Source: a virus. From it: 51,014 bases of DNA. The notes beneath the pieces are model-generated. The model worked only from the letters and a program-made list of their open reading frames with translations, ran no database searches and was not told where the DNA came from. Location: positions 1 to 51,014 of the IMG/VR virus record IMGVR_UViG_3300035698_022667; one strand, 5' to 3'. The translations under genes and the position numbers were made by a program. Shown piece by piece: positions 2,261-45,342 of this stretch (its first letter is position 1; every line of letters begins with the position of its first letter).

Positions 2261-3976
2261 ATGAATATCGACAATTATTTAGATGAATTCACAGAAACAT
2301 TTTTCCATGATGATTTCACATGGAGAAAAGGACAAAGAGAAGCAGTATACGAAATCATAAAAGCGTATGAAAATAAATTTAAGACTGTCATTTTAGACGC
2401 TCCTGTCGGATCAGGAAAATCTATTATCGCTATGGCAGTTGCGTGGATTTTAAATCAAGAAGCTAAAAGAGGATATATTCTTGCTTCAGATATTTCTCTT
2501 CAAGAACAATACGAAAAAGACTTCAAACGATTCGGATTCGATTGGGGTTCTATAAAGGGGATCGACAATTACATATGTATTGATAATATGGAGAAGAATT
2601 CTTTAGGAACTTGTCGTATTAGAAATAAACCTGCAAAGAAAATGTATTGTTATAGAGAATGCCCTTATTTTTCAGCAAGAGAAAAAGCAGCAGAATCGCC
2701 AACAGCTCTTCTTAACTATGCATATTGGCTTATAATGATGAACTATGTTTATCCAAGTATGGGAGATGAATCTATATTTAAACCAAGAGATTTTACAATA
2801 TGCGATGAAGGCCATAAATTACTTGACATAGTTCAAAATCATTATGCACCAAGATTTGATAAAAAGACTGTCGAGAAATTAGAGAAATTAACTCATTTCT
2901 TTGGTCTTTATAAATTGCATGATCATTCTCGAGATTTGCACGATCTTAAAACTAACATTAAGAAGTTATTCAAAACAGAAAATCAAGATGATCTACATGA
3001 AATAATGTCCGAAATCGAAGAATCATTTGAAGAATATTTTCCATCCGTTAAAAAATTAAAAGATAGAGTTAAAGAAGAATATCCTCATGATGATCCTCCA
3101 AAGGCGTGGAAAGAAACTCTTCGTATATCAGATTGGTTAAAAGATTTACATTGTAAAATAGAAGATTTTAATGATATTATAGACCAAACATCTACACGAA
3201 ATCTTATTAAAAATCCAACAGGCGAAGAAGAATTAACATTTAATTGTTTAGAAGAATCTTACATGATGCAGAAGTATTTTCATGCATCAACAGGATTCAC
3301 AGTGTTGATGTCAGCCACGTTTGCTGATCCAAAAGATTATATCAGAAGTATATCTTTAACATCAGCAAAATATATTAAAATGGAAAATTCCTTTTCATTT
3401 TTAAAATCTCCAATTTATTTTTACAACAAGAGACGAATGGGTTTTAAAGAAATAGATAAAAATTTAGATTGGATGTGTAACAAAATTGATGAAATTTTAG
3501 ATGCTCATCATAATGAAAGAGGTGTGATACATACAGCATCTTATGCTCTTACAATGAAAATTTATGTAAAACTTTCTAAAAAGAATCAAAAACGTATTTT
3601 AGTATATAGTGGAACTAAAGAAAAACGACAAGTAATAGAAATTTTAAAAAAGAATGAATCTAAAATACTAATGGGACCTAGTCTAAGTACAGGATTAGAT
3701 TTAAAAGACGATTGGAGTAGGTTTATGATAATTACAAAGATTCCATATCCTAGTTTGTCAGATAAATTTGTTGCTGCGAAATTAAAAATTTCACCTGAGT
3801 GGTATAAATGGAAGACCATAATAGAAGTATTACAGTCTATTGGACGTCATATTAGAAATGAAGATGATTGGTGCGTAGGCTATATTTTAGATGCATGCTT
3901 AGGTGATTTAATTCATCATTCAAGGAAATCATTTCCTATTGAATTTTTAAATCGCTTAAGAGTTGTGAATGAGTAG
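2261..3976 (+). CDS. XPD/DinG-type superfamily 2 helicase
   Basis: This 571-residue ATP-dependent helicase shows its motifs in order. Walker A is APVGSGKSI (about residues 47-55). A DEAH-variant box reads CDEGHKLLD. Motif III is LMSATF, motif V is GPSLSTGLDL, and motif VI is QSIGRHIRNEDD with the expected arginines. Between motifs Ia and II lie four well-spaced cysteines (YICIDN, GTCRI, MYCYRECPYF), the signature position of the iron-sulfur cluster in XPD/Rad3 and DinG helicases. It probably unwinds DNA or R-loops during replication, recombination or repair. It has its own transcription start region after a strong terminator. The final residues overlap, on the other strand, a homing-endonuclease-like remnant. 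Length and motif order look complete. Confidence 0.88.
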   Translation: MNIDNYLDEFTETFFHDDFTWRKGQREAVYEIIKAYENKFKTVILDAPVGSGKSIIAMAVAWILNQEAKRGYILASDISLQEQYEKDFKRFGFDWGSIKGIDNYICIDNMEKNSLGTCRIRNKPAKKMYCYRECPYFSAREKAAESPTALLNYAYWLIMMNYVYPSMGDESIFKPRDFTICDEGHKLLDIVQNHYAPRFDKKTVEKLEKLTHFFGLYKLHDHSRDLHDLKTNIKKLFKTENQDDLHEIMSEIEESFEEYFPSVKKLKDRVKEEYPHDDPPKAWKETLRISDWLKDLHCKIEDFNDIIDQTSTRNLIKNPTGEEELTFNCLEESYMMQKYFHASTGFTVLMSATFADPKDYIRSISLTSAKYIKMENSFSFLKSPIYFYNKRRMGFKEIDKNLDWMCNKIDEILDAHHNERGVIHTASYALTMKIYVKLSKKNQKRILVYSGTKEKRQVIEILKKNESKILMGPSLSTGLDLKDDWSRFMIITKIPYPSLSDKFVAAKLKISPEWYKWKTIIEVLQSIGRHIRNEDDWCVGYILDACLGDLIHHSRKSFPIEFLNRLRVVNE

Positions 3977-4054
3977 CTTTTTACCTTTATTCCAAGGAGT
4001 TTTTCCTTTTTTGTATTGCTCATTTTTAATCGTCCGGCTGACTTTCCTAAAACT
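3956..4054 (-). pseudogene. Remnant of a NUMOD3-type homing endonuclease
   Basis: On the minus strand, between a TAG at 4055-4057 and a TAA at 3956-3958, lies an open stretch of 32 codons. It contains KGKTPWNKGKK preceded by RKVSRTIKNEQY. The PWNKGK motif is typical of NUMOD3 DNA-binding repeats of phage GIY-YIG/HNH endonucleases, and the HNH gene at 44314-45342 carries the same motif (PWNKGKH). There is no start codon or catalytic domain, so this is read as a decayed C-terminal fragment. It overlaps the 3' end of the helicase gene by about 20 bases. Confidence 0.5.
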
Positions 4055-4108
4055 CTAATCGCTTTTTTATATATTCATTTAAAATGTTGAATAAATAAAA
4101 TAAACCTT

Positions 4109-4474
4109 ATGACAAAAAACAAAGATGAAGGCTGGTCAAAATTATTAACACCAGAACAATATAGAGCAATTGATTGGTTTATGAATAATCCACCAATATA
4201 TTTTAGATGGTTTATTCCTTTTTTTAGAGCAATATCCAAAACTATATACATATTATTAATGATATGTATTGTAATGGTAGTAGTATCTGCTGTATCAGGC
4301 GCAGAACTATTTGAACTTATCAAAACTATTCTATTCATAAATTTTGGAGTTGCAGGATTTACTCTTGTATCTCATTTAATAAAAGTATTCTATACTAAAA
4401 GATATGCGAAGAAAATAGGATTAACTCTTAAAGAGTGGGACTGGGTGACCGTTGGCCAGAAATGGGATATATAA
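4109..4474 (+). CDS. Small membrane protein, two predicted transmembrane segments
   Basis: The 121-residue protein has two strongly hydrophobic segments at about residues 42-64 (ISKTIYILLMICIVMVVVSA) and 71-92 (ELIKTILFINFGVAGFTLVS). They are flanked by basic residues (VFYTKRYAKK after the second). The N-terminus is polar and probably cytoplasmic. It sits behind a degenerate AAATAAATAAAATAAA leader, and its stop codon is part of the late-promoter-like motif of the next gene. No family recognised. An inner-membrane role such as superinfection exclusion or lysis is possible but unsupported. Confidence 0.65.
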   Translation: MTKNKDEGWSKLLTPEQYRAIDWFMNNPPIYFRWFIPFFRAISKTIYILLMICIVMVVVSAVSGAELFELIKTILFINFGVAGFTLVSHLIKVFYTKRYAKKIGLTLKEWDWVTVGQKWDI

Positions 4475-4480
4475 AATAAA
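4467..4480 (+). promoter_or_regulatory. Late-promoter-like 14-mer
   Basis: Exact ATATATAAAATAAA, overlapping the stop codon of the upstream gene and ending 7 bases before the ATG at 4488. Confidence 0.65.
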
Positions 4481-4487
4481 ACAACAT

Positions 4488-4755
4488 ATGAAACTAGTTA
4501 AAGAACATTTAAACGAAACTCAACGTTATTATGATGACGATTTAGAGATCCCTTATATTTTAGGTAAACAAGGACTAGAAAATATGAAGTATTTTGGCCT
4601 GATGGGGCAAATCTGTAGTTGATAACTGGAAAATGAGAAAAATCTCTGAAGAAGAATATAAAATCTTAATCAAAACCTATTTTGAACATGAAAAATTCAT
4701 GAAGAAAGCATTTAGAAATGCACAAGCAGATGAAAAAGAAAACAAAAATGAATAA
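4488..4755 (+). CDS. Tag-bearing protein, frameshifted (MKLVKEHLNE)
   Basis: Strict translation gives 44 residues starting MKLVKEHLNETQRYYDDD and stopping at 4620-4622. Removing one G from the GGGG run at 4604-4607 joins this to a coding-like frame (GKSVVDNWKMRKISEEEYK and on) that runs to the TAA at 4753-4755, giving about 88 residues. The tag, the intact late-promoter-like motif and the coding quality downstream argue that the full gene is real. The frameshift is then either a homopolymer error or a recent mutation. The restored C-terminus is a charged helix. Function unknown; candidate internal head protein. Confidence 0.6.
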
Positions 4756-4761
4756 ACAATA

Positions 4762-6117
4762 ATGGCATTACAACAACGCTATAATAATGAGAACATTTTA
4801 TCTCGAGCAGTAATCGCAGGTCTTTTAAATATTCTTAATAATAAGATTACTTATGAACAAATATAGGACAATGATAATGTTGAAACTGTTATTGTTCCTT
4901 GGTTCTATAATATGTCTGGTGATGAAAGATTCATGCAAGATTTTTATACTCATTATGGACATTGTGTTCCGCCTAAACCTGTCGATGGTAATTTTGATAT
5001 GATCCCAAGAGGAATTGTAACATACACAGGTTCAGTTATTGATCCTGTTAGAACAACATCTCGTTTCATTCAAGGAACTTATCTTAAAGATGTTGATGGC
5101 CAACTTCAAACATACAGATCATTTTTATATTCAATTCCATTAAATGTTAATTTTGATTGCGAACTTTGGTTTGATAATCAAATAACATCTCTTAAAGTTG
5201 AACAATTACTTCGTGAAATATTCTATAAAACAATAACATTTTATGTATATTATAAAGGTATGCGTGTTGGATGTAGTGTAGGATTTCCAGAAGATTATAC
5301 ACTTCAGAAAAATATTCAATATTCATTTGAAACTACAAATACTACTGTTCCTAAATTAAATTTCAATTTACAAGTCGAAACATATCAACCCGTTTTTGAC
5401 CCAACTACTGAAGTAAATGCGAATGAATATATGACTGGAGTTGGACTTCGCTTATGGACAAATAAAGAAAAAAATGATGGCGCGATTGTAGTTACATCAC
5501 CAGTAGATTCATCATACGCTAATCCTCTTTTAGTTCCTAAAGGCTATCCTCTTATGATAGATTGGAATTATACAGATGAAGCAGGAATAATAAATAAAAT
5601 AGATGTATACTGGAATGATGCTTCAACAGCTAACGCAACAGACCATGTAATTGAAAAGGGAGTTCCTAATCATGAATATTATGCATGGAATATTCCTGAA
5701 ACATTTACAACTTTTAAACAACCTGCAATAATTTGGGATGAAGATACAAGTATTTTTGCATACAGAAACCCTATAGTTAAAATTTTACCTGATATTCTCC
5801 TTGATACATCTATTATGATAGATGCAAGTTCTTTTAATATTTTAGACACTGGATATTTTCTAACACCAAATTCTGATACATCAGTAAAAATAGTTTTAGA
5901 GATGAAAGACACACAGGGGCGAATTGTATACACAGGAGATTCTTCAATATATATAAATATAGTAGGAAATAAGATAAATGAACTTGATCCTATTTGGATT
6001 CCTAATGGATCGATTAAATATCCTGGAGCTGTAGATTATAAGATGATTAACATAAAAATTGCAAATAGTGTCAATACTGACATATTTGGAACAGCTAAGA
6101 ACATTAAAATAGTCTAA
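4762..6117 (+). CDS. Probable virion structural protein (in-frame TAG at 4864)
   Basis: The frame opens with ATG at 4762 (MALQQRYNNENILSRAVIAG), is interrupted once by TAG at 4864-4866, and continues uninterrupted to 6117 as a long beta-rich protein. If TAG is read as Gln (one C-to-T change) the product is about 451 residues. If not, translation could only begin at the ATG at 4912, which removes a helical N-terminus that looks native. The central part (RFIQGTYLKDVDGQLQTYRS, then FYVYYKGMRVGCSVGFPEDY) has the feel of conserved T4-like virion proteins, and the C-terminal 250 residues look like Ig- or carbohydrate-binding-like beta domains. I cannot assign a T4 gene number. It lies among other structural-looking genes. 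Confidence 0.7.
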
Positions 6118-6180
6118 AATTTTTTTAAAACGTTAAATATATAAATAAATATATAATGAAATCTAATTTAATCACATACA

Positions 6181-6193
6181 ATATATAAAATAA
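6181..6193 (+). promoter_or_regulatory. Late-promoter-like motif (13 of 14 bases)
   Basis: ATATATAAAATAA followed by G instead of A, 31 bases before the ATG at 6225. It has a longer leader than most copies. Confidence 0.5.
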
Positions 6194-6224
6194 GAAAGTT
6201 TTAACAAAAAAATAATCATTAACT

Positions 6225-8378
6225 ATGATAACAAAAATCAATCAATTAAAATCTCAAACATCTGTAGCAGAAGTACAAGTATTATGTGAGTCTACCATTA
6301 ATACTATAAGTTCAGCTATCTATAACGGAGTTACTGCTGATGCACGTCGTGAAATTGAAAGAGCAGCAATAAATAATCTTTTTGAAGGTTTATCAAAATA
6401 CCCTGAGGACAAACTTATATCGGAATGGGTAAGTAACCAAAAAAGGATCTATTCTGTTAAAAATTTAGGTATTCGAAGAGCTGTTAATATTTTAATAGAA
6501 AAAGAAGCCAAACAAGATGATACATTAGCTGCTATACTTGATGATTTCAGAGAAAAATTAGATATTACTCCTGAAGTACTTATTTATGAAAGTTTTGTTT
6601 CAGCGATGAATGGATTTAGTTATCTTCCAACTGTTAACACAGAGTTATCTTCAATCGCAGAGAAAATTAAAAAATACAAAAATGATGTGGACATCACAAA
6701 GATCATTGAAGTAATGAAAGGAACTAGAAGCAATTATCTTCTTCCTCTTATTGAAGATGTTGTTGAAGGATATTTAACTAATAAAACAGAACAATCAAAA
6801 CATGTATTGAAAGAAACTTTAGTGAAATTCAGTTATGACCCTTTTATTCTTGATATTATCAATCTTGTTATGCTTGACGCAACAGATCTTAAATTAGAAT
6901 ATGCAAATGCTGCATGCGATATTGAAGAAAGATTATTTTCACCAATTATGTATTTAGGAGAAAATGAAACTATATTTAACGTAAAGGGAACCTTCTATGT
7001 TAAAAAAGGAAATAACATTAATAAAATCAAAAAAGACGAGGTTAATAAAGTTGATGAAAGTTTTAAAGACTTATGTCAAGTAGTTAATTTACCTGCAGTA
7101 GAAATTTCAAAAAAAGATATTAAAGTTTATGTAGGAAAAGATAATGCAGTTTTAACTGAATCAGAAACTCTTATTAATGGAAAAGTAATGAATGACAATC
7201 AACTTAATGAATCTTTACAAGTTGCGTCTTGGAGTGGAACTTCAGAATTTTATAATCTTATAAATGTACTAAGAGAGAATTTTAATGAAATTGCAGAACT
7301 TGATTTTATTAAAAGAGTATATCTTAAAGAAAATGAAAATTATAGTGCAGATGTATTCAAATTGAGAGATAATATTTTTATTACTACATTTGATCCTATT
7401 AATAATAAATCAACATTTTATCGTAATATCAATCCAATACAGGCTGAAAAGATTATGATGGAACATATGAGTTTTGATGTATCTAAAACTTTTGAAGATA
7501 TTCTTCCAAATAAAGAAAAAATCTTATCTGAAATTGAAACAACAAAACAAGAATATTCAGATTATATTAAATTAGTTGAAAATAAAATAGAGACTTTCCA
7601 AACACAAGAAAACAATGAAACTACGAAAGCAGTAATATCTGCTCTTACAGAAGAACTTGACGAAGTTAAAAATGATTATAAAGATTATCTTAATAAGGTT
7701 GAAGAATTCACAAGTGTAGCAGAAAACTTGAACATAACAGTTCAAGATGATCAAACACAAAAATCTTATACTGTTGTTGTTCCGACTGGAGCCATGGCTG
7801 CAAAAGGAGAAGATCCTGGAGCAGATCAAACGGGTGCTGAAGGTGATAATTTTGGAACTGAAGTTGGAATGGCAAATTTACCAGCAGCAGAAGGGCCAGC
7901 ATCAGCAGTCACATTTGATGATGATAAGTCAGAACTTTTAAGTGACGCTCCATCAGATGAATCAGATACAGTAGACTTAGATGCAGAAAGTATTGAAGCA
8001 GAAGCAGATGTAGTAGATGCAGAAACAGAATTAGAAACTCCTGAAGATAAAGAAGCGATAGATACAGGTTCAGACGAATTAGGTGTAGCTGGTGGAGATC
8101 AAGAAAGTGACGAATTAAATCTTGGCGATGAAGGTGGAGATGCTGAAAAATTAGATTTAGAAGAACCTAATGCAAATGAACCAGGAGATCCTGATAAAAC
8201 TAAAGAAGATTCTCCAGAAGAAGGCACAGACGCTGAAAAAGAAGAAGAAGGTGTAGAACCTCCAACTGCCAATTTAGAAAAAACTAATTTTAATAAGGAT
8301 AAAAATCCAGACGATTTAGAAGATAAAAAGAAACCTACAAAAGTATTTCTTAAAAGGCCAAAACCAGCTAAAAAATAA
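6225..8378 (+). CDS. Large protein with very acidic C-terminal third
   Basis: The 717-residue protein has no recognised family. Residues 1-470 are mixed alpha/beta with long helical stretches. Residues about 450-505 are likely coiled coil (ETTKQEYSDYIKLVENKIE and on). From about residue 525 to the end it is Ala/Gly/Glu/Asp-rich and strongly acidic. It finishes in a short basic tail (KKPTKVFLKRPKPAKK). An acidic body with a coiled coil and a basic end is reminiscent of phage scaffold or prohead-core proteins, but sequence alone does not prove this. It precedes another unknown gene by 8 bases; both start MITK. It has a near-consensus late promoter motif. Confidence 0.75.
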   Translation: MITKINQLKSQTSVAEVQVLCESTINTISSAIYNGVTADARREIERAAINNLFEGLSKYPEDKLISEWVSNQKRIYSVKNLGIRRAVNILIEKEAKQDDTLAAILDDFREKLDITPEVLIYESFVSAMNGFSYLPTVNTELSSIAEKIKKYKNDVDITKIIEVMKGTRSNYLLPLIEDVVEGYLTNKTEQSKHVLKETLVKFSYDPFILDIINLVMLDATDLKLEYANAACDIEERLFSPIMYLGENETIFNVKGTFYVKKGNNINKIKKDEVNKVDESFKDLCQVVNLPAVEISKKDIKVYVGKDNAVLTESETLINGKVMNDNQLNESLQVASWSGTSEFYNLINVLRENFNEIAELDFIKRVYLKENENYSADVFKLRDNIFITTFDPINNKSTFYRNINPIQAEKIMMEHMSFDVSKTFEDILPNKEKILSEIETTKQEYSDYIKLVENKIETFQTQENNETTKAVISALTEELDEVKNDYKDYLNKVEEFTSVAENLNITVQDDQTQKSYTVVVPTGAMAAKGEDPGADQTGAEGDNFGTEVGMANLPAAEGPASAVTFDDDKSELLSDAPSDESDTVDLDAESIEAEADVVDAETELETPEDKEAIDTGSDELGVAGGDQESDELNLGDEGGDAEKLDLEEPNANEPGDPDKTKEDSPEEGTDAEKEEEGVEPPTANLEKTNFNKDKNPDDLEDKKKPTKVFLKRPKPAKK

Positions 8379-10341: not shown

Positions 10342-12186
10342 ATGACAAAAGAAGAATTTATCGCATATATTTCAAAGGATAATCCAGGGTTTTATAAAAC
10401 AAGAAAATCTCATATTAACAAAATTTCCCCTAATATTTTAATAGAAATAAATAATTTTATTAATAATAATAAACTAGTAATTATCAATTTTAGTGATTCT
10501 TTAAATTATTTTTTAAATGACTTAACAAGACAGGTTAGATGTTTGAATTGCGGAAAACCTATTCATTCGAAATCTCTATATTGTTCAGTTAATTGTAAAA
10601 ATCACGACATAAAAACCATCATATCAAAAACTCAGCAAACTTTATTAGCTAAAAATGGGTCAACATCTCCTCTTGGATCTAAAGAAGCAAAAGAAAAAAG
10701 AAAAGAAACGTGTATTAAAAGATTTAATGCTGAACATCCATCTATGAATGATGATATTAAATCTAAGATACAAAAATCAAACAAAAAAACATACGAAGAT
10801 AAGAATTTACGAAAGAATATATCTCAAAAAATAAAACAAGCGTATAGTACTGATGGCGAAAATATAATAAAGAAAAGAAAACAAGCAAACTATAAATCTA
10901 CAGGTGAATATAAAACGTTAACCTCTAAAGCTATATTAAAGGCTAAAAATACCCTTAAAGAAAGATATAATGAGAAAAATCCGTTTAAAATTCATCCCGA
11001 TACATATGAGAGAGCAAAATTAGGATCTATAAAATTTTTTAATAATAATAACAATAAAGAAAAAGCTTTAGTACAGCGCAGCAATACAATTATTTCTAAA
11101 TATGGGTCATTAGAAAAAATGAATGAAATTATTTTTTCAAGAAAAAAAGAAAAAATACTACAATCTATACTTGATTTAGGGTTTAAAGACGAAATTGTAA
11201 ATTATAATTATGATCATATCGGAAAAGTAACATGCAAGTGTGAAAAGGGACATAATTATGAAATATCATTTAGACTTTTAAGAGAAAGATTAAAAAGAAA
11301 TGACATGTGTTGTACAATATGTTCGCCCCCTTTAACTAAATGGACATCAAATGGCCAAATAGAAATGTTTAATTGGTTATCAGAACATGTATCATGCAGA
11401 CAAAATAATAGATCATTGTTAAACGGGCAAGAAGTTGATATATTTGTACCTAGTCATAATTTTGCTATAGAATTTAACGGAGTTTATTGGCACTCTGATT
11501 TATTTAAAGATAAAAATTATCATCTCAACAAAACACTAATTTTGAAAAATAAAAATATTAAGTTAATTCATGTATGGGAAGATTTATGGGAAAGTAAAAA
11601 GGAAATAGTAAAAGCTAGAATTCTTTCGAATTTACATTTAGATTCAATAAAAATTGGTGCAAGAAATTGTAGTTTGAAAGAAATTTCTAGTTCAGAAATC
11701 AATGCATTTTATGAAAAAAATCATTTGCAAGGAAAAACAAAAGGAATGTTGCACGTCGCGTTATTTTCTAATAACAAAATCGTATCAGCTATTAGTGTTG
11801 GAAAGAGAAAATTAGGAAAAAATAAAGGCAATAATTTTGAAATTCTTAGATTTTGTAATAAATTAAATATAAATTGTATAGGTTCTTTTAGCAAACTTTT
11901 TAAATATGTTAAAAATATGAACGACGGAAAATATATTTCATATGCAGATATGTCGTGGGGGGAGGGAAATGTTTATAGTCATGCTGGATTTGTTCTAAGG
12001 GAATATTCTAAACCAAATTATTGGTATTTTATCGAAAACCAAAGATTTCATAGGTATACTTATAGAAAAAGTGAATTAATAAGAAAAGGATATGATAAAG
12101 AAAAAACAGAATTTCAAATAATGAATGATGATGTTAAAGCACTTCGCATATATGATTGCGGAAATGCAGTATGGGAAACTTTGTAA
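10342..12186 (+). CDS. Homing endonuclease, Vsr/EDxHD-like
   Basis: The 614-residue free-standing endonuclease has an N-terminal zinc-finger-like CLNCGKPIHSKSLYCSVNC (about residues 73-91). A long basic Lys/Asn-rich DNA-binding region with repeated helices follows. A second Cys cluster appears at about residues 299-330 (CKCEKGH, CCTICSPP). The nuclease core is GQEVDIFVPSHNFAIEFNGVYWHSD and, about 35 residues on, LIHVWEDLWESK, matching Vsr-like homing nucleases. The C-terminal 150 residues (NHLQGKTKGMLHVALFSNNK to the end) are also present, truncated, at 34415-34927. It inserts directly after the late sigma gene and is bordered by a duplicated 3' end of that gene. Confidence 0.8.
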   Translation: MTKEEFIAYISKDNPGFYKTRKSHINKISPNILIEINNFINNNKLVIINFSDSLNYFLNDLTRQVRCLNCGKPIHSKSLYCSVNCKNHDIKTIISKTQQTLLAKNGSTSPLGSKEAKEKRKETCIKRFNAEHPSMNDDIKSKIQKSNKKTYEDKNLRKNISQKIKQAYSTDGENIIKKRKQANYKSTGEYKTLTSKAILKAKNTLKERYNEKNPFKIHPDTYERAKLGSIKFFNNNNNKEKALVQRSNTIISKYGSLEKMNEIIFSRKKEKILQSILDLGFKDEIVNYNYDHIGKVTCKCEKGHNYEISFRLLRERLKRNDMCCTICSPPLTKWTSNGQIEMFNWLSEHVSCRQNNRSLLNGQEVDIFVPSHNFAIEFNGVYWHSDLFKDKNYHLNKTLILKNKNIKLIHVWEDLWESKKEIVKARILSNLHLDSIKIGARNCSLKEISSSEINAFYEKNHLQGKTKGMLHVALFSNNKIVSAISVGKRKLGKNKGNNFEILRFCNKLNINCIGSFSKLFKYVKNMNDGKYISYADMSWGEGNVYSHAGFVLREYSKPNYWYFIENQRFHRYTYRKSELIRKGYDKEKTEFQIMNDDVKALRIYDCGNAVWETL

Positions 12187-39636: not shown

Positions 39637-41664
39637 TTAACCTTTTCTCCATGGCAAACTATGATTACTCCTTTCAAAAGAATAGCTGGGTATATATCTT
39701 TTGTTCTCAAGTTCATTATTCATAGCTTTTGTCATAGCTGATTCAGTAGATTCAGATTCTTCATACATTAATTTAAACGTGTCATCATCAGTATCACCAT
39801 TCTCAGTATGTTCTTCAATCAATTCTCCGATTAATCTTTTCTGTGGACTATCTTCAAACCCATCAAACAAATCATAAAGCCATTCTTCATATTCCGTTTC
39901 TTCGTAAAAACGACTAACATTTAATGCACTCATTACGATATCATCATGAGCTCCAACTCCTCTGTATCTTCCTCTTTTATCTTTTCCAAATGCTCTAAAT
40001 TCTTTTGCTGTTTCAACTTCATTAAGAATTAAATTTCTTTTTGAGACCATTTTCTTCCCAAGTTTACAGAAAAAATCTTTATCTGCTCCAACTTTGAATC
40101 CTGCTTTTCTTCTTGGTGGTTTTTCTCCAACAATAGGTTTTGTATGATATGTATGTAAAACACAAGCATCTTCATAATCATCATGTTGTGAAAATTTATC
40201 TAAAAAATGTTTCCCATTAAAATTCATTTCAATTAAAACTTTACAAACTTCAAGATTAAATTGGTCGAATACAATGGATCGTGTGACCTTAGCGCAATTT
40301 TCTTCATCTTTTATATTATCCCTATATAAACCTACTTGAGTTAATCTAAACATATTCTTGATGTTCGTTTCATCATTTCTAAGTCTTTTTAATTGTGAAA
40401 GACTTTTCATTTCAACTTTAAAAATTATGCATACATTATAATCGTTATCCTTTATTTCGTCTTCATCTTTTCCCTCTCCTGTATCGATAGATAACACAAA
40501 CCTATCATTAGTTTTATCAATATCTTTATTAGGATCAAATTTTGGATGCCATTTTAAATTGCGATATAAACTTTCATCTAAATCAGTTTTAGCCAATTCT
40601 TCCCAGTTATATTCGCATTGAAGTTTACTAATTAACTCTAAATCTTTCATTCCTAATAAAAGACTGTCACCTCTATTAAATAATAATTTAAATTCTTGTG
40701 CAAATCGCTCTTCTCCAAAGTCAGCAATCATTTTTTCTGCCCATGCTTCATCATGTTCAGGAACTTCATTATAATCAACTCGAATAGGTATAAATGAGTT
40801 AATCCCTTTAATAGCTTTATCCCAAATTTCAAAGAATAGATCGTATTCACTTGCAGGTGTAGATGTAATTATGCATTGTGATATTTCTGATGAAGCTAAT
40901 GTAGGATAAACTGATCTCCAGAATTCTGTTACGATATTTGCTTGAATATGAGCAAACTCATCAGCATATAGTACATGAATCGTAAAACCAATTTGCGCTG
41001 TTTTAGTAGTTGCTTGTGATAATAACTTACAGCCATTATCTAAAACCATTCCTCCTGCGCCAGCATTAAATATTCCTGGTTTTAAAAAGAACGGTAGTCC
41101 TTTAAATACATCAGTTACTTTTGATACAATTTCGAACGCTGTTGCTTGTTTATTAGCAAGAATCGCTAAGTTTCTATCATTATGAAAACACATATACCAT
41201 GCAAAAAATGCTGAAATTGTTGTGGTATTATGAGAAATTATATCATTACTATAAAATGTATGTTCTTTGCTATCAACTGTAACATCATACATACTAACTT
41301 TAAATGGTAATTTTTTAATTTTCACTATTCTATCTAATCCATAACGTGTCTGTATATAATCATTTATGCATAAATCTTTAATAAAAATTTCTTCATTTAT
41401 CGAATTGAATATTACATGATTATCAGCGCATTCTAATTCTAAACCCTTTTCTGTTTTTAAAGCCCATATACAATATGGCTGTGTTTTGTGTATTTGAGTT
41501 AGTTTTTCAAATCCTGAAGGCGTATCAATTTCAATATCATTCAATTTAATAGTATCTAATATTTTTTTAGATATATCATTTTGATCTAAATGTAAGTTTC
41601 TGTATTCAATTTTTTCTATTAATTGAATTAAAAATAAAATAATATATTTAAGCAGCGTTTTCAT
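39637..41664 (-). CDS. 17: Terminase large subunit, C-terminal part with C-intein
   Basis: The first 146 residues of this 675-residue protein are intein: IEIDTPSGFEKLTQIHK, then GLELECADNHVIF (block B with His), KVSMYDVTVDSKEHTFYSND (block F) and IISHN (block G, terminal His-Asn). Residue 147 begins the extein, TTTISAFFAWYMCFHNDRNL, which completes the Walker A motif ASRQTGK-TTT begun at 42650-43180. Walker B is HVLYADEFAHI, motif III is CIITSTPASEY, and the nuclease domain includes FVLSIDTGEGKDEDEI and ARGVGAHDDIVMSALNVSRF-like sequence. After splicing the motor would have about 652 residues, close to T4 gp17 (610). Its start overlaps the endonuclease gene by 17 bases. Confidence 0.9.
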   Translation of the reverse strand: MKTLLKYIILFLIQLIEKIEYRNLHLDQNDISKKILDTIKLNDIEIDTPSGFEKLTQIHKTQPYCIWALKTEKGLELECADNHVIFNSINEEIFIKDLCINDYIQTRYGLDRIVKIKKLPFKVSMYDVTVDSKEHTFYSNDIISHNTTTISAFFAWYMCFHNDRNLAILANKQATAFEIVSKVTDVFKGLPFFLKPGIFNAGAGGMVLDNGCKLLSQATTKTAQIGFTIHVLYADEFAHIQANIVTEFWRSVYPTLASSEISQCIITSTPASEYDLFFEIWDKAIKGINSFIPIRVDYNEVPEHDEAWAEKMIADFGEERFAQEFKLLFNRGDSLLLGMKDLELISKLQCEYNWEELAKTDLDESLYRNLKWHPKFDPNKDIDKTNDRFVLSIDTGEGKDEDEIKDNDYNVCIIFKVEMKSLSQLKRLRNDETNIKNMFRLTQVGLYRDNIKDEENCAKVTRSIVFDQFNLEVCKVLIEMNFNGKHFLDKFSQHDDYEDACVLHTYHTKPIVGEKPPRRKAGFKVGADKDFFCKLGKKMVSKRNLILNEVETAKEFRAFGKDKRGRYRGVGAHDDIVMSALNVSRFYEETEYEEWLYDLFDGFEDSPQKRLIGELIEEHTENGDTDDDTFKLMYEESESTESAMTKAMNNELENKRYIPSYSFERSNHSLPWRKG
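41227..41664 (-). other. C-terminal fragment of a split intein (146 residues)
   Basis: This is the intein part of the downstream terminase polypeptide. Blocks B, F and G are present and it ends in His-Asn before Thr+1. Residues 1-40 (MKTLLKYIILFLIQLIEKIE and on) form a hydrophobic/charged helical lead that may dock to the N-intein. Block B lies in this fragment, so the break is upstream of the usual split site. Confidence 0.85.
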
Positions 41665-42616
41665 ATAAAAAATTTATGCATTTTTTTATTGTTTCTTCTT
41701 GATTAGACCAGTATTCATCTTCCCATATTACTAAAATATCATAATTATGTGCTTTAGCAATGTCACATTTTCTTTTATCAAATTCCCTGATTTCTTTTGC
41801 AGTTTTATGACTTATTTTATGAATATAATCATCTGCATATAAGCTTTCTTTTGCATGCCAAAATACCCCATTAATTTCAATGATTTTTTTTGTATTCATA
41901 TTTGTTAAATCATATTTATATGCTCTTTTGTTTTCCTTATCGTATATAAATTTTTCTGATTTATCATAAAGTAATTTATCATTATTAATATTATGAATTT
42001 TTATTTCATTTATAATTTTCTCTGATAATTTTGAAATCCCCTTTCCTATGTATGTATCTTTATTAAATACTTTTGCTTTCCATTTTCTTTGTCTTTCTTT
42101 CCATACTTTTGTTCCCTCTTTTTCACCATATTTTATAATACATTTTTTTAAAGAAAATGTAGTTTGCCTATTTTTTAATTCAGCTTCAGCTTCTTTTTGT
42201 TTATATCCCCGCTTTAGATAATAATCTATAGTTGTTGTAAATTCTCTATTTTTTAATGCTTCTTCAATAAAAAGCGTGCGATCCTTATCTGTTAAACCTC
42301 TTTTTATATAAAACTCTTTTGAAAACGGTGAGCGGCCTTTTCGAGTTTTTTCATCAGTTTTATTTTTTGAATTAACATTTTTATCTCCTTTCCAATTATC
42401 TGATGCTTGCTTTCTATATTTTTTTTGAGACATATGTTTTCCGCTATTTTTAGAAATGTTAATTTTATCAGATACACACATTAGAGGTTCTCCTGGAAAT
42501 TCTTTTTTATAATCATTTGAAGTTTTTCCTGGATGCGAAAATTTTATATGCTTTCCGTATATTCTTTTAACTGGTTTATTGCACCATTTGCAAATAATAT
42601 AATCATCCATAGTCAT
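41648..42616 (-). CDS. Homing endonuclease gene between intein halves (Vsr-like)
   Basis: This 322-residue protein starts with a Cys2-His2-like finger (YIICKWCNKPVKRIYGKHIK, then FSHPG). Basic helical repeats follow (KEFYIKRGLTDKDRTLFIEE, REFTTTIDYYLKRGYKQKEA). The C-terminal nuclease core is TKKIIEINGVFWHAKESLYA and YDILVIWEDEYWS. It shares the E-x-NGV-x-WH and WED-x-W features with the endonuclease at 10342. A separate endonuclease gene lying between split-intein halves matches the 'fractured gene' arrangement described for phage-like environmental sequences. It presumably drives homing of the whole cassette into intein-free terminase genes. Confidence 0.85.
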   Translation of the reverse strand: MTMDDYIICKWCNKPVKRIYGKHIKFSHPGKTSNDYKKEFPGEPLMCVSDKINISKNSGKHMSQKKYRKQASDNWKGDKNVNSKNKTDEKTRKGRSPFSKEFYIKRGLTDKDRTLFIEEALKNREFTTTIDYYLKRGYKQKEAEAELKNRQTTFSLKKCIIKYGEKEGTKVWKERQRKWKAKVFNKDTYIGKGISKLSEKIINEIKIHNINNDKLLYDKSEKFIYDKENKRAYKYDLTNMNTKKIIEINGVFWHAKESLYADDYIHKISHKTAKEIREFDKRKCDIAKAHNYDILVIWEDEYWSNQEETIKKCINFLYENAA

Positions 42617-42649
42617 TTTATTCTATATATTTGGCATCTAGACAAATAA

Positions 42650-43180
42650 TTACAAATTATCTATTTTATAATAAGCAATCATTAGATTAACTTTAATTTT
42701 TTCTAAAATTGTGAGTTTTTCTTTTCTGAAATAATATAACAAATTTACAGGAAGTTTTAATTGTGCATGAGTAACTTCATCTCTTAAAATTATTTCACTT
42801 CCAAAAAGACATTTGCCAGTTTGACGACTAGCCATAATAATTAAGTTCCTATTCTCCGGGCCAAGTTCTTCTAATATGTCGATATATTTTTCTGCTGCTA
42901 ATAATCGAAGAATTGTTTTTTGTTTTTCACGTAAATTAACAATTGTACGACCTTTATCAGTCATGAATCGACAATATTTTTCTACGAAATAAACAATATC
43001 TTCAGAACACTTATGAAATTCATCTATTTCATCAGGCGTTAATTGATAAAGAATATTTCCTGCCTTTAATTCAATGTCTTGTTGATAGAAACATCCTAAA
43101 TCAGTAGGTATGCCCATTCGGAGTTTTTCTAAAGATTGTTGGACAATGACACTATTCCATATCGATACAGTATTTTGCAT
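42650..43180 (-). CDS. 17: Terminase large subunit, N-terminal part with N-intein
   Basis: Of 176 residues, 1-123 are the N-extein: ILYQLTPDEIDEFHKCSEDI, VYFVEKYCRFMTDKGRTIVN, LREKQKTILRLL, and NLIIMASRQTGK, the first half of the ATPase Walker A loop. Residue 124 is Cys1 of the intein: CLFGSEIILRDEVTHAQLKL, then a hydrophobic/charged helix to the stop. Without splicing the P-loop would lack its Thr residues and the motor could not work. It lies 3 bases downstream of the small terminase gene. Confidence 0.9.
   Translation of the reverse strand: MQNTVSIWNSVIVQQSLEKLRMGIPTDLGCFYQQDIELKAGNILYQLTPDEIDEFHKCSEDIVYFVEKYCRFMTDKGRTIVNLREKQKTILRLLAAEKYIDILEELGPENRNLIIMASRQTGKCLFGSEIILRDEVTHAQLKLPVNLLYYFRKEKLTILEKIKVNLMIAYYKIDNL
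42653..42811 (-). other. N-terminal fragment of a split intein (53 residues)
   Basis: It starts with the nucleophile Cys1 and block A-like CLFGSEIILRDEV, and ends before any block B (no TxxH). It is much shorter than the 90-100 residues of canonical N-inteins, so this is an atypical split. It resembles in kind the short N-intein reported for the AceL TerL intein. Confidence 0.82.
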
Positions 43181-43183
43181 AAC

Positions 43184-43852
43184 TTATGATTTTAAGTCTT
43201 CGGGAACTAATTTAGCATCTGTAATATCATTTGCTTCTTCTGTTTCTCGGTTAGCATTTTTAATACGCTTGACATTATTTATAAGTTCTTTAGTTCCTCG
43301 AGTTACAACGCTGCCATCACCTGTTGTTAACATTCCTGATGTTCCATTTGATTGAGGACCTAAAGCTTCAGTACGATTTTCTTTTATGCTATCTTTTATA
43401 TTTTTATATGTTGACTGAATTGCTTCAACTGTTTGTAAAAGTTGTTTGTTTAAATCTCCAATTGTTTTAGATAATTGACCAAACACTTCCCACATTCGGG
43501 GATTAATCATTCCAGCATTAACTTGTTCCATTAATGCTTTTTGCATAATTTCGTTAATTCTTAATTGATATATCATTCCAGATAAGGACATAGCATCTAC
43601 ATCAATTTTATTTTTTAAATATTCATTTCCTTTAATCATATCTTGAGGTAAAGAAAATTTAACTGAATTTAATATCATTGCTTTTGCATCACTTTCACAT
43701 GTTTGCTTTAATTTAGAAAAATCTACATCCATTATAGGTTGTGTTTCTAATTCTGGCATATCTGAACCCGGCACTGCAACATTTTTTGAAATATTTTTTG
43801 GTGCATTTGTCAGTATCTTTTCTATTTCTTTGCGTTCTTCTGTTATTTTCAT
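43184..43852 (-). CDS. 16: Small terminase subunit, gp16-like
   Basis: The 222-residue protein has a polar N-terminus, then a helical core with GMIYQLRINEIMQKALMEQV, MWEVFGQLSKTIGDLNKQLL and TVEAIQSTYKNIKDSIKENR. This resembles the coiled-coil oligomerisation region of T4 gp16-type small terminases. The C-terminus is Gly/Thr-rich then charged. It lies immediately upstream (3 bases) of the large terminase gene, as in T4-like phages. Sequence support is moderate and position support strong. Confidence 0.7.
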   Translation of the reverse strand: MKITEERKEIEKILTNAPKNISKNVAVPGSDMPELETQPIMDVDFSKLKQTCESDAKAMILNSVKFSLPQDMIKGNEYLKNKIDVDAMSLSGMIYQLRINEIMQKALMEQVNAGMINPRMWEVFGQLSKTIGDLNKQLLQTVEAIQSTYKNIKDSIKENRTEALGPQSNGTSGMLTTGDGSVVTRGTKELINNVKRIKNANRETEEANDITDAKLVPEDLKS

Positions 43853-44313: not shown

Positions 44314-45342
44314 TTAAATTATCCAGTCATTTTCTAAATAACTCCATAATTGATCTATATCTACAAATTTCTTTTGTTCGTTTTTATAAACTGCTTTTCT
44401 TCCTTTAATTGCTGCTGGTTTTCCTTTTTTTGCTTCACTTTGTTTTTTTCTAGTTTCTGAAGAAATGCCAATTTTGCCTTTATTCCAAGCTTTTTGCCCT
44501 TTATGAGAATCACTTTGTTTTCTTCTTGTTTCTATAGATGCTTTTGTTCCTAATTGCCTTTCGCTTTGTTTTTTATTTTGTTCTGGAGTTCGTTTCTTTC
44601 CTTTTAATTTTTCTCTACGCTTCTCGATAGTCTTTTGAGATTGTTTTCTTCCTTTCCCTGCTTCACTTATTTTTCTTCTTGTTTCCTCAGAAAGATGCTT
44701 TCCCTTATTCCACGGAATTTTTCCAAACATTGGATTTTTTTCTCCTAAATTAGCTTCTCTTTGTTTTTGCAATGTTTCTGAAGATCTTTTTATACCTCTT
44801 ATTTTATCTGCTCTTTTTTTCTTTGTTTCTTCAGACTGGATTGTGCCTTTTTTAGCATCACCTATTTTTTTACAATGTTCTGGAGATTTACATTTTCCTT
44901 TGTGCAATTTTCTTAATTTTTCTTTTGTTATTTGTGCTTTTTCTTTTCCAATGATTTCTTCTAATGTTTTTCCAAATCTAAATAATTTTAGCTTTTCACG
45001 TGTTTCTTTTGTAATAGATGTTAATTTTAACACTTCTTTAGCATACGCGTAATCTCTTGAAGAAACGTATTTATTATATTTTTTGTTATACGACATATAA
45101 TGAAATGCCTCGCATATTTTTCTATTTTTCGAATAAATATATGTTAACAATTTATGACAAACAAAATGTTCTCGCGCAGTTAATAAAACTAAATTTTCTT
45201 CATCATCGTTTCCATTCATACACCTTGGAATGATATGATGTTTTTCAAAGTAAATATAGTCATCTTCATTTTTACTTAATTTAATTCTATTTTTAAATTT
45301 TGCTTTATGAATTATAGTTTCATAAATTTTTTGATGATTCAT
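44314..45342 (-). CDS. HNH homing endonuclease with NUMOD3 repeats
   Basis: In this 342-residue protein the HNH core is near the N-terminus: FEKHHIIPRCMNGNDDEENL followed by VLLTAREHFVCHKLL (His-His, Asn, His). The C-terminal 200 residues are repeated NUMOD3-type DNA-binding motifs (SEETKKKRADKIRG, NPMFGKIPWNKGKHLSEETR, SQKTIEKRREKLKG, KAWNKGKIGISSETRKKQSE). It ends in a short VDIDQLWSYLENDW segment. It has inserted between the neck-protein gene and two tag genes. An exact copy of the 14-mer directly abuts its ATG. Confidence 0.9.
   Translation of the reverse strand: MNHQKIYETIIHKAKFKNRIKLSKNEDDYIYFEKHHIIPRCMNGNDDEENLVLLTAREHFVCHKLLTYIYSKNRKICEAFHYMSYNKKYNKYVSSRDYAYAKEVLKLTSITKETREKLKLFRFGKTLEEIIGKEKAQITKEKLRKLHKGKCKSPEHCKKIGDAKKGTIQSEETKKKRADKIRGIKRSSETLQKQREANLGEKNPMFGKIPWNKGKHLSEETRRKISEAGKGRKQSQKTIEKRREKLKGKKRTPEQNKKQSERQLGTKASIETRRKQSDSHKGQKAWNKGKIGISSETRKKQSEAKKGKPAAIKGRKAVYKNEQKKFVDIDQLWSYLENDWII

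What the first reader, a model, noticed from the sequence alone, without database searches (positions are those of the whole stretch)
41227..42811. Atypical split position: N-intein of only 53 residues, block B on the C-fragment
Canonical split inteins break after block B, at the endonuclease insertion site. Here block B (ECADNH) is on the C-fragment and the N-fragment carries only block A plus a hydrophobic helix. The TerL intein from Ace Lake (AceL) is a known atypical case with a 25-residue N-intein in the same gene. This one may be a new member with a longer N-fragment and distinctive helical association segments (VNLMIAYYKI and LLKYIILFLIQLIEKI).
Basis: partly seen in the sequence, partly recalled or inferred. 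Interest (0 to 1): 0.78.

Follow-up and report, generated by a model that had tools for sequence, protein, structure and literature searches.

The report
Split intein broken by endonuclease gene
In this phage the DNA-packaging motor protein is encoded in two halves that should be stitched together by a split intein, which was apparently broken at an unusual place when a DNA-cutting selfish gene landed inside it; relatives preserve unbroken, invaded and emptied versions.

Summary
On the minus strand, terminase (TerL) is split at its Walker A motif (GK|TT). The N-gene ends in a 53-residue intein fragment (Cys1, block A); a 322-aa Vsr-like homing endonuclease gene (HEG) follows; the C-gene starts with 146 intein residues carrying block B and the C-terminal motifs. 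Intein-less relatives fix both junctions. In 18 of 18 split loci aligned, the break is homologous: the loop between two helices before block B. Two relatives have the intein unsplit, so the 'association helices' are arms of a pre-existing hairpin. Eight relatives have lost or degraded the HEG yet stay split. Best reading: a class 1 trans-splicing intein fractured by HEG insertion at the atypical S2 position. It is not an AceL/GOS-TerL member: 80 of 80 AceL-type loci found sit at another TerL site (N|CEFLG) with shorter N-fragments and mostly a GIY-YIG-type ORF, although they seem to have broken the same way. Three contigs carry both split inteins, so TerL is encoded in three genes. Splicing was not assayed. 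Verdict: new variant of a known kind.

The parts
42812..43180 (-). TerL N-extein, 123 aa, ending ...ASRQTGK (first half of Walker A)
   Evidence: phrog_5989 terminase large subunit E 1.7e-19; adjacent to C-extein in intein-less relatives; T4 gp17 alignment of an intein-less relative
42653..42811 (-). IntN, 53 aa: Cys1, block A, helix, first arm of helical hairpin; stop TAA at 42650-42652
41648..42616 (-). free-standing Vsr-like (EDxHD-type) homing endonuclease gene, 322 aa
41648..41664 (-). 17-nt overlap: HEG 3' end and stop on the IntC start codon
41227..41664 (-). IntC, 146 aa: second hairpin arm, block B (ECADNH), C-terminal splicing motif, SHN
   Evidence: (TIGR01443 20.3 bits, above its cut-off)
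39637..41226 (-). TerL C-extein, 529 aa, starts TTT (Thr+1)
   Evidence: (Terminase_6N E 2.1e-13)
43184..43852 (-). terminase small subunit gene just upstream (context)
   Evidence: phrog_735 E 1.2e-4

Best explanation
This is a naturally split class 1 intein in the phage large terminase, broken at the atypical S2 position (after the first helix, before block B) by an inserted free-standing Vsr-like homing endonuclease gene. The two polypeptides TerL-N-IntN and IntC-TerL-C associate, complete the HINT fold across a helical hairpin whose loop was the break point, and splice in trans through Cys1, the block B His, His145-Asn146 and Thr+1, restoring the Walker A motif GK|TT of the essential packaging ATPase. 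The endonuclease presumably spreads the IntN-HEG-IntC cassette into intein-less terL genes. Its 3' end overlaps the IntC start by 17 nt, which probably couples translation of the C half to the endonuclease. Shown by sequence: split, junctions, conserved residues, homologous unsplit forms, recurrent HEG decay with the split retained. Inferred: splicing activity, homing, coupling, and the role of the helices.
For: Junctions exact against intein-less alleles. Cys1 in all 18 split IntN rows aligned; block B His (H83) in all 24 IntC rows and HN in 22 of 24 (L060 ends LN, L063 ends SQ). 18 of 18 split loci aligned to unsplit L046 break at its residues 44-50. The AF2 model of unsplit L046 (pLDDT 89.1) has helices 32-46 and 50-64 with the break between them; its nearest structures are inteins (VidaL Z 16.7; Foldseek). 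L040 (split, HEG) and L046 (unsplit) show an insertion between AGAAAA and CTTAAAAAATATA. Of 24 contigs with both halves, frames were read in 22: 20 split, 2 unsplit. Of the 20, 10 have a complete HEG of this family, 1 another HEG, 1 an unrelated ORF, 8 a decayed or absent HEG. Purifying selection in close pairs: IntN dN/dS 0.08-0.12 in L040/L046, L048/L051, L048/L052; IntC 0.03-0.20 in five close pairs, including L048, which has lost the HEG. Only one TerL match in the window record. HEG relatives: VSR endonuclease in the split PolB intein of Aeromonas phages, with the same 17-nt overlap.
Against: No splicing, cleavage or expression data. The structure model is of an unsplit relative, not of the window's two fragments together. 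Block A of the window departs from the usual G-D-T (CLFGSE). In L043/L045 IntN dN/dS is 1.52, though their IntC is 0.03. L063 ends Ser-Gln instead of His-Asn. Fold and profile evidence for the HEG is weak on its own (Foldseek E 0.19, hmmsearch E 0.055). Unsplit L046/L050 are nested among split forms, so they could be re-fused rather than ancestral. 2 of 12 complete HEGs do not overlap the IntC start.
Confidence: 0.86

Rival explanations
1. The halves are joined at RNA level: the HEG lies in a self-splicing intron inside a continuous intein gene.
For: HEGs often sit in introns; terL of phage ICP1 is RNA-spliced (PMC10448857, passages).
Against: No group I or II match in 36-46 kb. In relatives the halves are separated by only 28 nt in a different frame (L048, L049) or 60 nt (L030), too short for a known self-splicing intron; in L031 the C ORF overlaps the N ORF.
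Confidence: 0.04
2. The terminase is a broken pseudogene and the fragments do nothing.
For: A stop and a foreign gene interrupt an essential ATPase motif; L063 has lost HN and carries a further, degenerate terL-like ORF downstream.
Against: Low dN/dS in both halves of close pairs; conserved catalytic residues across very different phages; one TerL match in the window record; the split is kept after HEG loss.
Confidence: 0.05
3. The two TerL fragments work as a non-covalent complex without splicing, as in some split phage polymerases.
For: Association helices could hold the halves together.
Against: The break lies between K and T of Walker A, and splicing residues would then not be conserved; intein sequence would remain in the ATP site.
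Confidence: 0.03
4. It is an AceL/GOS-TerL family member with a longer N-fragment.
For: Same gene, same S2-type break, weak profile similarity to CatC (E 1e-7).
Against: Different TerL site and +1 residue in 80 of 80 AceL-type loci, different cargo; both inteins occur together in one gene in L096, L108 and L126.
Confidence: 0.02

Closest known systems
AceL-TerL / GOS-TerL / Cat-TerL atypical split inteins
   Same: TerL host; N-terminal S2-type break after the first helix; block B on the C-fragment; an ORF sits in the break in 55 of 61 loci whose N-fragment was found
   Different: insertion site N|CEFLG with Cys+1 against GK|TT with Thr+1; N-fragment 25-37 aa in print and 28-37 aa in loci read here, against 53 here; GIY-YIG-type ORF against Vsr-like HEG; no helical hairpin
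Fractured genes with split inteins (Dassa et al. 2009; title seen in reference lists only), e.g. Aeromonas phage Aes123/Aes508 PolB
   Same: order N half - free-standing Vsr-like HEG - C half; 17-nt overlap of HEG end with IntC start
   Different: there the annotated IntN is about 120 aa and IntC about 40 aa (Aes508), i.e. the canonical position; here the S2 position
Cis TerL inteins of Ackermannviridae (Vibrio phage Kuja, Klebsiella phage Magnus and others)
   Same: same TerL insertion site GK|C...HN|T, homologous IntC region
   Different: one continuous gene, another linker in place of the hairpin, no HEG in the intein
VidaL intein
   Same: closest solved fold (Z 16.7), atypical split
   Different: break at S1 with a 16-aa N-fragment (PMC13014065)

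Membership tests
Class 1 split intein (trans-splicing) | Cys/Ser1, block B His, C-terminal (His)Asn, Cys/Ser/Thr+1 | tested here: met
   Cys1; H83 and HN; Thr+1; profile alignment to solved inteins
Class 1 split intein (trans-splicing) | HINT fold | tested here: met
   model of unsplit relative L046; not run on the window's own fragment pair
Class 1 split intein (trans-splicing) | two separately translated halves | tested here: met
   ORFs with stops; recurrent in relatives
Class 1 split intein (trans-splicing) | ligates exteins in trans | not testable with these tools
   needs expression of both fragments
AceL/GOS-TerL atypical split inteins | TerL site N|CEFLG, Cys+1 | tested here: not met
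   80 of 80 AceL-type loci have NCEFLG; window has HN|TTT at Walker A
AceL/GOS-TerL atypical split inteins | N-fragment 15-37 aa | tested here: not met
   53 aa here; range from PMC13014065 section 4
AceL/GOS-TerL atypical split inteins | S2 split after helix 1, before block B | tested here: met
   S2 definition from PMC13014065 passages
Fractured gene (split intein with free-standing HEG between halves) | HEG gene between IntN and IntC ORFs | tested here: met
Fractured gene (split intein with free-standing HEG between halves) | HEG of the Vsr-like / I-Bth0305I family | tested here: met
   tblastn to VSR endonucleases of split PolB loci E 1e-7 and of Tenacibaculum phages E 2e-10; Pfam MTES_1575 in 11 of 12 and DUF559 in 8 of 12 relatives; Foldseek top hit I-Bth0305I prob 0.97 but E 0.19
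Fractured gene (split intein with free-standing HEG between halves) | endonuclease cuts the unoccupied site | not testable with these tools
   biochemical assay needed
Self-splicing intron carrying a HEG | intron RNA fold spanning the insert | tested here: not met
   Rfam cmscan; 28- and 60-nt gaps in relatives

The most novel reading that the evidence does not exclude
Natural atypically split TerL inteins, at two different TerL sites and with two unrelated endonuclease families, were created by the same event: an endonuclease gene landing in the loop after the first helix (S2) rather than at the canonical site. One locus family shows every stage: intein-less gene, unsplit intein, fractured gene, HEG decay with the split kept. 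At its 3' end the Vsr-like HEG carries the out-of-frame start codon of the downstream half (same 17-nt overlap in TerL and in PolB), making it a portable gene-splitting module. Some phages carry both inteins, so their terminase is assembled from three polypeptides by two natural split inteins acting in one protein.
Probability: 0.5. Interest if true: 0.76.

Novelty: new variant of a known kind. Interest (0 to 1): 0.63.

Why it matters
A 2019 structural paper (PMC6801210, discussion passages) calls it puzzling that endonucleases in inteins always sit at one site, and says that if free-standing endonucleases invaded at random, inteins with them elsewhere should exist. This family looks like that case, because the endonuclease is a separate gene that breaks the intein. 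It suggests how atypical split inteins, which are used as labelling tools, can arise in nature. It offers N-fragments of intermediate length (46-62 aa, against 15-37 and 100-130 in print) with Cys1/Thr+1 chemistry, and two inteins that coexist in one protein and so may be orthogonal.

Tried and rejected
Intron inside the intein: Rfam search negative, and relatives have gaps too short for one. AceL membership: rejected by insertion site and +1 residue. Helices as a new docking device: a hydrophobic-moment test against shuffles was weak (first arm p<0.05 in 2 of 20, second in 8 of 20), and the helices are present in unsplit relatives. Net charge is positive for IntN in 20 of 20 rows (median +5) and mostly zero or negative for IntC (median -3), but the two unsplit forms share this, so it is not evidence for splitting. 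A mixed alignment of IntN and IntC fragments (A3) misplaced the N-fragments and was not used. The scan of genome contigs gave one relative, a Bacteroidales MAG contig (L077), nearly identical in IntC to L033. dN/dS for distant pairs is not trusted (AT-rich, saturated); only close pairs are quoted, including the unfavourable one. L044 was first read as having a broken N half; under TGA=W it is open. The insert of L044 (309 aa, HExxH-like by eye, motif recalled) had no Pfam or PHROG match. My GIY-YIG text pattern missed 13 of 55 site-B ORFs (starts MYHIY or MYNIY); I counted them by length and start, and Pfam was run on one only (L108). L128's ORF is cut to 95 aa. In the intein tree the outgroup was not one side of a branch, and 11 of 28 inner branches are open. 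Papers: sections or passages seen of PMC11766414, PMC13014065, PMC6801210, PMC6892783, PMC12350094, PMC10448857; abstract only of PMC6333167; the founding papers on fractured genes, AceL-TerL and GOS-TerL were not held, so what they say about genes between the halves is unknown to me. Literature searches whose listings showed no report of this family: (open-access library only).
Full report
WHAT IS THERE. On the minus strand the large terminase is encoded by two genes separated by a third. 43180..42650 encodes 123 residues of TerL ending ASRQTGK and then 53 residues CLFGSEIILRD...YYKIDNL. 42616..41648 encodes a 322-residue protein. 41664..39637 encodes 146 residues ending IISHN and then the rest of TerL starting TTTISAFF. 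The profile of intein C-termini (TIGR01443) is matched above its cut-off and Terminase_6N lies directly behind it. A small terminase gene precedes the set. The window record of 51,014 bases has one TerL match.

EXACT JUNCTIONS. [quoted passage not shown] Aligned to T4 gp17 structures, an intein-less relative places this point within the Walker A motif, between the GK and the TT (the name Walker A for this motif is recalled). The intein therefore starts at Cys1, ends at Asn146 of the C-fragment, and has Thr at +1. TerL cannot have an intact P-loop without joining the halves.

SPLIT POSITION. Canonical split inteins have N-fragments of about 100-130 residues and natural atypical ones 15-37 residues, the atypical breaks being at S1 (VidaL, PolB16) or at S2, after the first helix (AceL-TerL, GOS-TerL) (PMC13014065, section 4 and passages). 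Here the N-fragment is 53 residues, and 46-62 in the 18 split loci aligned. Block B, the C-terminal motif and HN are all on the C-fragment; the profile of C-fragments aligns these blocks with gp41-1, VidaL and CatC.

UNSPLIT RELATIVES. Two contigs (L046, L050) carry the same intein in one frame. L046 and split L040 are close (IntN dN/dS 0.12), and their DNA shows the gene inserted between AGAAAA and CTTAAAAAATATA. All 18 split loci aligned to L046 break at its residues 44-50. The AlphaFold2 model of L046 from 26 sequences has mean pLDDT 89.1 and shows a helical hairpin, helices 32-46 and 50-64, before the strand that leads to block B. The nearest solved structures are inteins, VidaL first. In the tree of C-fragments the unsplit forms lie among split ones, and holding all unsplit forms (these two and four Ackermannviridae) together is rejected (AU p 0.0027). 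Hence either unsplit inteins were invaded repeatedly at the same place or some re-fused; the data do not decide.

WHAT SITS IN THE BREAK. The C-fragment profile found 30 viral contigs. Of these, 24 hold both sides, and I read the frames of 22: 20 split, 2 unsplit. The two not read, L028 and L042, have the same spacing as L027 and L040 and hold the HEG. Among the 20 split loci, 10 have a complete HEG of the window's family; L004 has a different homing endonuclease (phrog_3339, E 2.5e-88); L044 has an unrelated 309-residue ORF and reads TGA as sense; and 8 have a decayed or missing HEG (L030, L031, L032, L033, L039, L048, L049, L052). Decay takes telling forms. L048 keeps 11 HEG codons in a 28-nt gap, and L049 matches it. 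L030 keeps the last 11 codons. L033 and the MAG contig L077 keep a 47-residue ORF. In L031 the first HEG codons now serve as the start of the C half. None of these eight returned to a single frame. Both halves remain under purifying selection in L048/L051/L052 (IntN dN/dS 0.08-0.10 in the pairs with amino-acid changes, IntC 0.15-0.17). Against this, L043/L045 have IntN dN/dS 1.52.

THE ENDONUCLEASE. Members match Pfam MTES_1575 (11 of 12) and DUF559 (8 of 12), and TIGR00632 vsr (5 of 12). The AF2 model (pLDDT 80.7, pTM 0.43) has I-Bth0305I and Vsr as best structural matches, but with E above 0.1. By sequence it is related to the VSR endonuclease that lies between the halves of the split PolB intein of Aeromonas phages Aes123 and Aes508 (E 1e-7). 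In those phages the HEG overlaps the C-half start by 17 nt, as in the window, L001, L034 and L036; overlaps of 8 or 4 nt are seen in six more, and none in L040 and L047 (10 of 12 complete HEGs overlap). In these 17-nt cases the out-of-frame ATG lies in the codons of an Ile-Tyr-Glu/Asp or Leu-Tyr-Glu near the HEG C-terminus. Translational coupling and a portable start codon are inferences.

COMPARISON WITH ACEL-TYPE INTEINS. A scan with CatC gave 80 loci (the best of 125). All 80 end in N|CEFLG, a different place in TerL. An N-fragment was found in 61: 55 have an ORF of the 189-residue GIY-YIG type between the halves (42 by text pattern, 13 by start and length; Pfam GIY-YIG E 2.8e-7 for the one tested, L108), 5 are split without an ORF of 40 residues, 1 is unsplit (L135); in 19 the N-fragment was not found or is off the contig. 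So the best-known atypical split inteins appear to have the same kind of origin at another site with another endonuclease. The cultured phage VP-1 has the site-B N-fragment fused in frame to a GIY-YIG domain.

THREE-PIECE TERMINASE. L096, L108 and L126 (3 of 80) carry both inteins; L096 and L108 are near-identical. L108: TerL-N-IntN(A) 985-1359; Vsr-like HEG 1391-2350; IntC(A)-TerL-mid-IntN(B) 2343-3314; GIY-YIG ORF 3342-3911; IntC(B)-TerL-C 3889-5070. L126 has HEG(A) cut to a 90-residue ORF that still overlaps the C half by 8 nt. The site-A N-fragment there is 39 residues with no hairpin, so the hairpin is a feature of the window's clade, not a requirement for the split.

MECHANISM AND STATUS. 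Shown by sequence: three genes, exact junctions, conserved catalytic residues, homologous break, unsplit and HEG-less relatives. Inferred: association and trans-splicing by the class 1 route, homing by the endonuclease, translational coupling. I rate trans-splicing after fracture by a HEG at 0.86. It works like a fractured-gene split intein and meets that kind's sequence features tested here; it is not a member of the AceL family because insertion site, +1 residue and fragment length were tested and not met.

Noticed in passing
window 10342-12186 (+): 614-aa homing endonuclease of phrog_3339 (E 5e-95), the same phrog as the alternative gene in the intein break of L004.
   Followed up: partly
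window 44314-45342 (-): Free-standing HNH endonuclease with NUMOD3 repeats near the terminase genes.
   Followed up: no
L044:4394-8118: This phage seems to read TGA as a sense codon (three genes open under code 4); the gene inside its split intein is a 309-aa HExxH-like ORF rather than an endonuclease.
   Followed up: partly
L063 (LR756500.1) 3956-6746: Relative whose intein ends Ser-Gln instead of His-Asn, with a further terL-like ORF downstream whose Walker A reads SRQMGIS, lysine lost.
   Followed up: partly
L160 (Vibrio phage VP-1) 1349-4691: Cultured phage whose TerL has a cis intein at Walker A, while the site-B N-fragment continues in frame into a GIY-YIG domain and the C half opens in an overlapping frame.
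   Followed up: partly
L084, L094, L099, L112, L128 (Walker A site): The same TerL site holds a different, 987-nt cis insert (ALSLDTPIPT...THN|S); Pfam finds a LAGLIDADG domain in L094.
   Followed up: partly
L078, L079 (Aes123/Aes508 polB): The HEG in the split PolB intein overlaps the C-half start by the same 17 nt as in the window.
   Followed up: yes
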